DNA of 59,000 nt from an uncultured bacterium (lineage in GTDB: Bacteria > Patescibacteriota > Gracilibacteria > Absconditabacterales > Absconditicoccaceae). The position numbers and the translations under genes are program-made. Where the stretch lies: NCBI GenBank assembly GCA_947170225.1, contig CAMVSQ010000005.1, positions 1 through 59,000 on the forward strand, in the 5' to 3' direction. Below the pieces are notes generated by a model. The model saw only the letters and a list, made by a program, of their open reading frames with translations. It was not told where the DNA came from and searched no databases. Positions 2,850-35,120 of the stretch are shown piece by piece (the first letter of the stretch is position 1; each line of letters starts with the position of its first letter).

Positions 2850-4139
2850 TTACGGTTTAATCCTATTGTGATACCTTGGAAATGGAATAGCTTCACGTAT
2901 ATGCTGCAATCCACAAATCCACATTACCAATCTCTCCAATCCATAACCAAATCCAGATGTTGTCACTCATCCATATTTTCTGATATCTAGGTACCATTCA
3001 TAGTCTTCCAATTTATATCCGTGATCCAAAATCTTCTTTTTCAAAGTTTCATAATCTCCAATTCTCTCTGATCATCCTATAATTTCTCCATATCATTCTG
3101 GAGCCAAAAGATCTGCACATTTTGCAGTTCATGGATGTTTTGGATCTTCTGGCATATAAAATGCTTTTATTTCAAGTGGGAAATTTGTCACAAATACTGG
3201 TTGCTCATATTTGGTCATAAGTAATGTTTCATCATCTGCTCACAAATCGTCTCAATCTTTGATATCAGATCCCATTGCTTGCAATTCTTTTACTACTTCA
3301 GCATGAGTTTTGCGGATAAATGGCTTTTGAATTTTTTCCAATTTGGAAATATCTCTACCAAGTATTTCCAATTCTGCTCTCTTGTTTTTCAAAACTCTCT
3401 GGACAATATAGCAGATCAAATCTTCTTGATAATCCATATTTCCATCGTTGTCTGTAAAAGCTTCTTCTGCATCCATCATCCATAATTCATTTAGATGCCT
3501 CCTTGTCTTGCTCCTTTCAGCTCTAAATACTGGCCCAAAATCATACACATTTCTGTGTCATGCAATAGTGGCTTCTATGTACATTTGTCATGTCTGGTTT
3601 AAATACATAGTTTCTCAGTTTGTATGTGTAGTTTCGTATAGTGAAGTACTATCCTCAGCACAAGTAGAAGTAAATATAGGAGAATCTATTTTTGTGAAAT
3701 CATTTTCTTTCATCCAGTCGTATGTGGCATGTACAATTTCATCTCTAACTCTTTGGATAGCTCGTTGAGATTTTGATCTCAAATACAAATGTCTATTGTC
3801 AAACAAAAATTCTACTCCATGCTCTTTTTGTCCAAGAGGATAATCTTTTGCCACACTAATTATTTCAAAATCTTCTGTCTGGATTTCATATTCATCTTTT
3901 TTTGGATGTTTGCTTACAGTTCATGAAATTTTGATTGAAGATTCTATACCACAATTTTTTAATTCATTAAATTTATTTTCTCATATATTTTTTTCTTCTA
4001 CGATACATTGGATGTATCCAGTTCCATCTCTAAATTCTACAAAACCAATTTTCCCAGAAAATCTGATATGCACTATCCAACCTGCTAAATTTACTTTTTT
4101 TCATACATAATCAGCATCAATTTTTTTTATCAAATCCAT
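2850..4139 (-). CDS. asnS: Asparaginyl-tRNA synthetase
   Basis: This 429-residue class II aminoacyl-tRNA synthetase charges tRNA-Asn with asparagine. An N-terminal OB-fold anticodon-binding domain (roughly residues 1-110) precedes the catalytic core. Motif 2 reads [14 protein letters not shown] near residue 206, and motif 3 is GFGYGLERL near residue 400, followed by an IPFPR ending typical of AsnRS. The pattern fits AsnRS better than archaeal-type AspRS, though the two are close relatives. Several glycines are TGA. Upstream there is no Asn-rich leader peptide or terminator hairpin, unlike thrS in this window. The gene converges on hflX. Confidence 0.93.
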
Positions 4140-32327: not shown

Positions 32328-34226
32328 TTATTTTTTGTTTTTTACAATTTCGTCCAATTTATCTACAAATTCATCTAATTTCAATACATATTGTTCTTTT
32401 GATACAAATTCTCTTACTGAAACTGTATTTGCTTCCACTTCTTTTTCTCCTACGATTAAGATGTATGGAATTTTCAAAAGTTCTGCATTTCTGATTTTTT
32501 TATTAAAACTGTCGCTTCATTCATCGACACTAGCCCTAAAATCATGAGTCTTTATTTCATTACAAACTTTTTGTGCATAATCATTGAAAGCATCAGCCAC
32601 AGGAATGATTTTCACTTGTTCAGGAGCTAACCATGTTGGGAAAACTCATTTCGTTTCTTCGATGATATATGCAAAAAACCTTCCAATTGCTCACAAAATT
32701 GCCCTATGCAATACTATTGGAGTTTTCTTTTCTCAGTCTTTATCTGTATATTTTAAATCAAATTTTGCAGGTAAACAGAAATCGAGCTGACAAGTAGAAA
32801 GAGTGTATTCATTTCATACAGCTGGTTTTACATTTACATCCAATTTTGGACCATAAAATGCAGCTTCTCAAATTTCCTCTGTGTAGTCCAATCACATTTC
32901 GTTCATTACTTCTCTCAAGGCATTTTCTGCTTTTTCTCGCATCTCATCATCTTGATGATATTTTACTTTATCTTCTGGATCTCTGAGAGATAATACACAT
33001 CTATAATTTTCAATTCCAAAATCTTTGTAAACATCAAAAATCAAATTTACTACTTTTTTGAATTCCTCTTTCATTTGTTCTGGAGTCACGAAAAGGTGAG
33101 CATCATTTTGACAGAAATGTCTTGATCTCTCGATTCATTTCAATGTACCAGAAGATTCAAATCTGAAATCATGTGCTATTTCTCCTATTCTGATTGGTAA
33201 ATCTTTATATGAATGTAATTGGTTTGCATATATCATCATATGATGTGGACAGTTCATTGGTCTCAAAACAAATTCTTCTCATTCTCTTTCCATGATTGGA
33301 AACATTCCATCTTGATAGTGAGCCAAATGTCCAGAGGTCCTATACAATTCTACATTTCCTAGACAAGGTGTCATTACATGAAAGTATCACAATTTTGTCT
33401 CTTTTTCTCTGATATATTCTTCCAAAAGATGATAAACTATATATCCACGAGGCAAGTACATTGGAAGTCATTTTCCAGTTAAATCATCAAAGAAAAACAA
33501 ATCCAAATCTTTTCCTAATTTTCTATGATCTCTCTTTTTTGCCTCTTCCATCATAGTTGCATATTCTTTCAATTCTTCTTTGTTTGAAAAAGCCCAAACA
33601 TAAATCCTTGTCATCATTACATTATCACTATTTCATCTCCAATATGCTCCAGCCAGTTTGTCGATTTTAAAAGATTTTGGATCGATTTCTTTTGTACTTT
33701 CTACATGTGGTCATTCACACATATCCAAAAATGTAGCAAATTTTCCAGCAAATTTTTCTGGGTATTTAGTTTGAAGATATTGGGTGATTCATTCATAATA
33801 TTTGATATAGTTTTCATCCACTCATTGCAAAACTCTATCTTTTGCAGCCTCTACGATAGTATTTACATAAAAAGAAATGGTCTCTCCAGCAGCCAAAAAT
33901 TCTCTCCTCATTTCATCCTTGTATTTTTGTTTCATGAGAGTATTTACCAAATAATCTGATTCTTCTGCTGGTACATCGATGCGGATCAATTCTTGTCCTT
34001 CTTTTACGATTTTTTCCATCTGATCTTGTACTTTTTTCAAGTCATCTTCTCAAATTTGTTTTTCTGGACTAAACAAAAAATCATAATACAATCAATTATC
34101 TATTGCAGGTCCAATGGCTACTTCTACATCTCGTTGCTGGACTCTCTGTACAGCCTCTGCCAATACATGTGCCAGTGTATGGCGCTGTCTAAATAATAAT
34201 GAATCTTCATGTTCACACATCTTCAT
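32328..34226 (-). CDS. thrS: Threonyl-tRNA synthetase (no TGS domain)
   Basis: The 632-residue class II synthetase charges tRNA-Thr. The editing domain has HTLAH near residue 16 and CEGPH, the zinc-site residues are present in MNCPHH, and the FRFESSGTL and QLDF regions match the catalytic core; an anticodon-binding domain ends the protein. The N-terminal TGS domain of E. coli ThrRS is absent, as the HxxxH motif is almost at the start. Start choice is ATG 34226 or 34220. Just upstream lie a Thr-rich leader peptide and a terminator/antiterminator pair, pointing to attenuation by Thr-tRNA supply. Confidence 0.95.
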
Positions 34227-34240
34227 AATAGTAATTTGAT

Positions 34241-34300
34241 AAAAAAAATCCTACCATCTGGTAGGAATATTTGATTGAAACAATACAAAACTCCTACCAA
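34241..34300 (-). promoter_or_regulatory. Transcription attenuator upstream of thrS
   Basis: Read on the minus strand, TCCTACC (34266-34260), loop AGAT, GGTAGGA (34255-34249) and a run of eight T form an intrinsic terminator 15 bases before thrS. An upstream GGTAGGA (34298-34292) can pair with the same TCCTACC and so prevent the terminator. This antiterminator arm starts 4 bases after the stop codon of the Thr-rich leader ORF, so a ribosome finishing the leader would cover it, whereas one stalled at Thr codons would leave it free. Confidence 0.8.
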
Positions 34301-34302
34301 TT

Positions 34303-34350
34303 TTAGCTGGTCAATGTAGTAGTTGTTGTAGTTGTTCCAAGATGCATCAT
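34303..34350 (-). CDS. Threonine-rich leader peptide of thrS
   Basis: A 15-residue ORF reads MMHLGTTTTTTTLTS: eight of fifteen codons are Thr, seven in a row (ACA ACT ACA ACA ACT ACT ACA). It ends 5 bases before the antiterminator arm and 77 bases before thrS. The layout equals the leader-peptide attenuators of enteric amino-acid operons such as thrL, but here it stands before an aminoacyl-tRNA synthetase gene. The ORF contains no TGA. There is no clear Shine-Dalgarno sequence, which is normal for this genome. Confidence 0.75.
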   Translation of the reverse strand: MMHLGTTTTTTTLTS

Positions 34351-34547: not shown

Positions 34548-35120
34548 ATGAGTGAAGAAAATAAATTTACAGCCCAAAAAACTATTTTTTTATCCATTTA
34601 TCTTTATTCAGTATTATTGTGGATTATATTATTTTTGTGATCTTCAATTTCTGATAAGATAAATTATGCTTTACAGGATGTTATAGATTATGGTTTAATT
34701 ATATTGTTTATGGTTCTTTTACCTCTGCTTTATTTTTTACCAGAAATAAAATCAAGAAAGAAGACACTAGTAGAAGTAAAGCCCAATTCCATAGCTATAA
34801 CTAAAACTCCAAGGAGAAAACCATCTAAAATACAAACAGCAGAATTTTCTTATAGCAACATTTTGTGAGTTTATTTCATACACAAAATTGAAATTTGGTT
34901 TGAAATAAAAGATAAATCAGCGATTGATGATTGAATGTTTGAAAAAGAAAAAATAATAAAAAAAATATACGGAATTAAAAAAGTATCGAAATATGGCAAT
35001 GTTATAAGAATATTTAACATTAAAAATATTGAAAAATTAAAAGATGAATTAAAATCAAAATGAGTAAATGTGTATGAATATATTCTTGATAGATATAAAT
35101 GATGGATAGAGATTGAGTAA
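34548..35120 (+). CDS. Hypothetical membrane protein, 190 residues
   Basis: Two hydrophobic helices (about 14-32 and 48-67) are followed by a basic linker and a soluble Lys/Ile-rich domain of about 110 residues. No family is recognised. A TATAAT at 34515-34520 sits 27 bases before the ATG. It is divergent from thrS. Glycines in TM1 and the soluble domain are TGA. Confidence 0.75.

What the first reader, a model, noticed from the sequence alone, without database searches (positions are those of the whole stretch)
34241..34350. Threonine leader-peptide attenuator in front of thrS in a code-25 bacterium
A 15-codon ORF with seven consecutive Thr codons lies before a GGTAGGA antiterminator arm and a TCCTACC/GGTAGGA terminator with a T8 tail, 15 bases before thrS. 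The arms are mutually exclusive. This equals enteric thrL-type attenuation, but controls an aminoacyl-tRNA synthetase; Firmicutes use T-boxes for thrS and E. coli uses translational autoregulation. I know of no description in candidate phyla.
Basis: partly seen in the sequence, partly recalled or inferred. Interest (0 to 1): 0.87.

Follow-up and report, generated by a model that had tools for sequence, protein, structure and literature searches.

The report
Threonine-sensing leader peptide before thrS
In front of the gene for the enzyme that loads threonine onto tRNA, these tiny candidate-phylum bacteria carry a short threonine-rich reading frame and a switchable terminator that should let a starving ribosome turn the gene on; the same design recurs across their class, which makes it a well-supported attenuator in a group where none seems to have been described.

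Summary
On the minus strand, 34350-34303 encodes MMHLGTTTTTTTLTS* (seven consecutive Thr codons). It is followed by GGTAGGA (34298-34292), then TCCTACC...GGTAGGA and T8 (34266-34241), 14 nt before thrS.

Neither the Thr run nor the three-arm array occurs in 100 shuffles of the window. Of 43 relatives in the order with readable thrS upstream DNA, 24 have a Thr-run ORF plus arms before thrS. The peptide is otherwise not conserved. The stop codon lies within -2 to +8 nt of the antiterminator arm in all 22 aligned leaders. Partners from the same genome pair better than swapped ones (z -8.0, -3.9 and -5.3 for arms 1:2, 2:3 and 3:4). In the window the terminator probability is 0.98 without a ribosome, 0.00 with a ribosome on any Thr codon of the run, and 0.98 with it at the stop.

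The element recurs before thrS in at least six other families of the class, including standard-code ones, with unrelated arm sequences. Related Thr leaders precede thrA-like and asd genes; Asn leaders precede gatCA/aspS genes. It was nearly absent (1 of 25) from other classes sampled.

The mechanism is classical; the lineage, breadth and target are new. No RNA data exist.

The parts
34303..34350 (-). leader peptide ORF MMHLGTTTTTTTLTS* (two in-frame ATGs, 15 codons, TAA stop)
   Evidence: read directly; Thr-run ORF conserved before thrS in 24 of 43 relatives
34315..34335 (-). run of seven Thr codons; also the core of segment 1
   Evidence: synonymous third bases vary while AC is kept
34315..34340 (-). 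segment 1: pairs with segment 2 when no ribosome is present (1:2 structure)
   Evidence: fold; 1:2 cross-genome swap z -8.0
34275..34299 (-). segment 2: antiterminator 5' arm (core GGTAGGA 34298-34292), 4 nt after the leader stop codon
34260..34270 (-). segment 3: TCCTACC core (34266-34260); pairs with segment 2 or with segment 4
34241..34266 (-). intrinsic terminator TCCTACC-AGAT-GGTAGGA plus T8; its 3' arm is segment 4
   Evidence: P(terminator) 0.98 / 0.00 / 0.98 in the three ribosome states
32328..34226 (-). thrS, threonyl-tRNA synthetase (code 25); the start may be the ATG at 34220
   Evidence: Pfam; orthologues

Best explanation
A ribosome-mediated transcription attenuator controls thrS. 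RNA polymerase makes the leader RNA while a ribosome translates MMHLGTTTTTTTLTS. With enough Thr-tRNA the ribosome reaches the stop codon, which sits at the edge of segment 2 and masks it; segments 3 and 4 then form the terminator and thrS is not made. With little charged tRNA-Thr the ribosome stalls in the Thr run, frees segment 2 and leaves it to pair with segment 3, so the terminator cannot form and thrS is transcribed. Without a ribosome, the Thr codons pair with segment 2 and the terminator forms by default. Shown here: the ORF, arms, conservation and mutually exclusive folds. Inferred: transcription, translation, stalling and response to threonine.
For: Observation and chance controls. 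Conserved Thr-run ORF before thrS in 24 of 43 relatives, with peptides otherwise different. Stop-to-arm distance -2 to +8 nt in all 22 aligned leaders. Cross-genome swaps lose pairing energy: 1:2 z -8.0, 2:3 z -3.9, 3:4 z -5.3; synonymous Thr codon choice favours 1:2 pairing, mean z -1.2. Terminator probability averaged over 24 order members: 0.77 free, 0.13 stalled, 0.88 at stop, and 0.82 in the stalled state if the spacer holding segment 2 is shuffled; 18 of 24 switch fully. In the window, P(term) is 0.00 for the A site on any codon of the run and 0.98 at the stop. Same design with unrelated arms in standard-code family f5, e.g. GAAGGGG / CCCCTTC / GAAGGG. Related Thr leaders before thrA-like and asd genes. 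No homoserine dehydrogenase hit in the window's genome or in any listed member of its order, so charged tRNA-Thr should depend on uptake and ThrRS.
Against: No RNA or expression data. The sigma-70 scan finds no minus-strand promoter before the leader, and no clear Shine-Dalgarno is seen. Column-shuffle covariation is weak: most paired changes are one-sided, such as G-C to G-U. Equilibrium folding does not switch in G018, G036, G043 and most f14 leaders, but it also fails for E. coli thrL, taken here as a known attenuator, so this is a limit of the model. Nineteen of 43 readable relatives lack the element.
Confidence: 0.92

Rival explanations
1. ThrRS binds the leader RNA and represses its own gene, as in E. 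coli thrS; the Thr run is incidental.
For: The target gene is thrS, and ThrRS autoregulation is known in E. coli (general knowledge; PMC2965389 mentions it).
Against: The conserved element is an in-frame Thr codon run with variable third bases, a stop codon fixed against segment 2, and a terminator. Similar Thr leaders precede thrA-like and asd genes, which are not ThrRS. No tRNA-like fold was noticed in the region.
Confidence: 0.03
2. A T-box or another known riboswitch senses uncharged tRNA-Thr directly.
For: T-boxes control thrS in Firmicutes (general knowledge).
Against: No Rfam family reaches its gathering score in the window; a permissive scan of the region lists no T-box; the leader is only about 120 nt and holds a conserved ORF.
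Confidence: 0.01
3. The hairpin is an ordinary transcript terminator and the Thr ORF is a chance repeat or an unrelated small protein.
For: Intrinsic terminators are common.
Against: The gene upstream (34548, plus strand) is divergent, so there is no transcript to end. The array is absent from shuffles and conserved across genera and families. Shuffling the spacer abolishes the switch.
Confidence: 0.02
4. The same leader acts by arrest of a Thr-rich nascent chain or on translation of thrS rather than on transcription.
For: The T run lies only 14 nt before thrS, so structures could also affect initiation.
Against: Leader peptides share little except Thr codons, unlike arrest peptides; a canonical terminator with a U tract is conserved.
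Confidence: 0.02

Closest known systems
E. coli thr operon leader (thrL, Rfam RF00506 Thr_leader)
   Same: Short ORF rich in Thr codons, terminator just downstream, adjacent Thr-related gene, predicted ribosome stalling.
   Different: Controls thrS, not thrABC; only Thr codons, not Thr and Ile; sequence match below threshold (20.1 against 55 bits); antiterminator arms unrelated.
Leader-peptide attenuators of other aminoacyl-tRNA synthetase genes (E. coli pheST; Streptomyces trpS and leuS, PMC1262725; bacillar hisS, PMC2965389)
   Same: The cognate amino acid run controls the cognate synthetase through competing hairpins.
   Different: Other amino acids and other phyla.
Proposed thrL-thrS leader of Streptomyces lividans (PMC8079986)
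   Same: Threonine leader before thrS.
   Different: Two Thr codons (MKRVRPFLETTPGFVPAR), one hairpin, no U tract and an unclear terminator; here 7-10 Thr codons in a ten-codon window in most leaders, a full three-state structure and class-wide conservation.
T-box control of thrS in Firmicutes
   Same: The same gene answers to tRNA charging.
   Different: Direct tRNA binding by RNA, no translation; not detected here.

Membership tests
Leader-peptide (ribosome-mediated) transcription attenuators | Short translated ORF with a run of codons for the regulated amino acid | tested here: met
   Seven Thr codons in frame in the window; 24 of 43 relatives. Translation itself not tested.
Leader-peptide (ribosome-mediated) transcription attenuators | Rho-independent terminator between leader ORF and structural gene | tested here: met
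Leader-peptide (ribosome-mediated) transcription attenuators | Mutually exclusive antiterminator, controlled by ribosome position | tested here: met
   By computed folding only: P(term) 0.98 / 0.00 / 0.98
Leader-peptide (ribosome-mediated) transcription attenuators | Downstream gene belongs to metabolism or charging of the same amino acid | tested here: met
   thrS, Pfam; also thrA-like and asd in relatives
Leader-peptide (ribosome-mediated) transcription attenuators | Expression rises when the cognate tRNA is uncharged, depending on leader translation | not testable with these tools
   needs RNA or reporter data
Rfam Thr_leader RF00506 | Match to the covariance model at its gathering score (55 bits) | tested here: not met
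   20.1 bits, E 0.21
T-box (Rfam) | T-box covariance match / specifier loop and antiterminator | tested here: not met
   No match

The most novel reading that the evidence does not exclude
Members of this patescibacterial class use ribosome-mediated attenuation as a general sensor of tRNA charging, as Firmicutes use T-boxes: Thr leaders control thrS, thrA-like and asd genes, and Asn leaders control gatCA with a GatB-AspRS fusion or a separate aspS, with arms rewired many times while the logic is kept.
Probability: 0.5. Interest if true: 0.76.

Novelty: new member of a known kind. Interest (0 to 1): 0.62.

Why it matters
Nothing in the searches made describes attenuation in Patescibacteria, which are hard to culture and whose gene regulation is little known. 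This element predicts tight transcription-translation coupling and sensing of host-derived threonine in cells that lack homoserine dehydrogenase. It is small and complete and can be tested in a surrogate such as E. coli. Its spread over many families with changed arms makes it a good case for studying how a regulatory RNA logic survives replacement of its sequence.

Tried and rejected
T-box or other Rfam element: none. Chance: excluded by shuffles. The MAFFT-based column-shuffle test gave little covariation and is not used as support. E. coli thrL as positive control does not switch under equilibrium folding, so non-switching relatives are not counted against the model. G044 was first scored from a chance stretch of a coding gene; its true leader was found 458 nt upstream. 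A thrS tree needs about 7 gains or losses of the leader and is no more clustered than shuffled labels, so gain and loss were not resolved. A Lys-rich candidate leader in G006 and G045 was not pursued.

Full report
What is there. The window is one whole contig (G000:C5) of a 0.95-Mb genome that reads TGA as glycine (17 TGA inside thrS). thrS lies at 34226-32328 on the minus strand. Its 5' region holds, in order: MMHLGTTTTTTTLTS* (34350-34303), GGTAGGAGTTTTGTATTGTTTC (34298-34277), TCCTACCAGATGGTAGGA plus T8 (34266-34241), 14 nt, and the ATG. The seven-Thr-codon pattern and the three-arm pattern each occur once, and never in 100 shuffles. The neighbour at 34548 is divergent, so the hairpin does not end an upstream transcript.

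Three structures. Folding gives the full classical set. Without a ribosome the Thr codons (34340-34315) pair with 34299-34275 and the terminator forms. With a ribosome on the Thr run, segment 2 pairs with segment 3. With a ribosome at the stop codon, segment 2 is covered and the terminator forms. With a footprint reaching 14 nt past the first base of the A-site codon, the terminator probability is 0.00 for every codon of the run and 0.98 at the stop. Shuffling the spacer that holds segment 2 restores the terminator in the stalled state (0.98).

Conservation in the order. thrS was found in 45 of 49 genomes. Of 43 with readable upstream DNA, 24 have a Thr-run ORF before thrS: 22 at first sight and G044 and G045 further upstream. 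The peptides share little but Thr; codon bases 1-2 are kept while the third varies (75 ACA, 44 ACC, 42 ACT, 18 ACG). The stop codon lies -2 to +8 nt from segment 2 in all 22 aligned. Swapping partners between genomes weakens 1:2, 2:3 and 3:4 pairing (z -8.0, -3.9, -5.3); these swaps do not correct for relatedness. Over 24 leaders the mean terminator probability is 0.77 free, 0.13 stalled and 0.88 at stop, with 18 of 24 switching fully.

Beyond the order. A covariance model of the leaders hits just upstream of thrS in other families of the class. Reading 60 upstream regions finds Thr leaders in 9 of 15 f14 genomes (some with only four or five Thr codons), 6 of 8 f5, 2 of 2 f15, and single cases in f29, f16, f6, f7 and, weakly, f22; none clear in f18, f4, f10, f26, f24, f13, f20, f21 or f23. 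f5 uses standard stops and has unrelated arm sequences of the same logic. Outside the class, 1 of 25 genomes (G461) had one, 390 nt before thrS.

Other targets. Thr leaders also precede an aspartokinase (partial)-homoserine dehydrogenase gene in two f18 genomes and asd in f24. In G042 an Asn leader (MKIVLTQVNNNNNNLPPRGFF*) with a switching terminator precedes a gatC-like ORF, gatA and a GatB-AspRS fusion; G011 has MVAFLTNNGNNDQLCKERFF* with the same arms before an aspS paralogue. The gatC, gatB and aspS names rest on my reading of the sequences; only the amidase was confirmed by Pfam. These cases support the leader-peptide reading independently.

Physiology. Homoserine dehydrogenase was found in 36 of 192 genomes of the class; the window's genome and all listed members of its order were negative. 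For such cells the controllable step is charging, which fits control of thrS. This is inference.

Prior work. Leader peptides before synthetase genes are known or proposed in Proteobacteria, Actinobacteria and bacilli (PMC1262725, PMC2965389, PMC8079986), including a weak thrS case in S. lividans. Searches of the held library found nothing on attenuation in Patescibacteria; papers outside it could not be checked.

What is not shown. Promoter, translation of the leader, termination and the threonine response are all untested. Covariation by column shuffles is weak, and equilibrium folding is an imperfect model, since it does not make E. coli thrL switch.

Noticed in passing
G042:C1 about 789980 (minus strand; L183): Asn leader MKIVLTQVNNNNNNLPPRGFF* with a folding switch before a gatC-like ORF, gatA and a 1086-aa GatB-AspRS fusion gene, next to an asparaginase-like gene. 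The fusion is also found in G001:C2:5531-8743, without an Asn leader in the 4 kb read upstream.
   Followed up: partly
L349 about 3567-3690 (G011:C51): Second Asn leader, MVAFLTNNGNNDQLCKERFF*, with GAGATTTTTCTAG arms like those of G042, before an aspS paralogue 60% identical to the fused AspRS.
   Followed up: partly
L337 and L338 (G072:C2, G081:C1); L344 (G170:C39): Thr leaders before an aspartokinase (partial)-homoserine dehydrogenase gene and before asd, in other families of the class.
   Followed up: partly
L333 (G109:C3), L334 (G096:C8): Thr leader and terminator before an unknown 54-60 aa ORF starting MCN; in G109 a pheS-like gene follows. Function unknown.
   Followed up: no
L339 (G006:C19), L340 (G045:C28): Lys-rich short ORFs (MISMPMATTKKSKKLLR*, MKNIHNIIKKKNNKLLQ*) with GTAGGAG / CTCCTGC / CAGGGGATTTT-like arms before unidentified genes: a possible Lys-type attenuator.
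   Followed up: no
window 34350-34241 compared with G042, G043, G044 leaders: The window's leader is nearly identical to those of genus g20, while its thrS groups with genus g19: leader and gene seem to have different histories.
   Followed up: no
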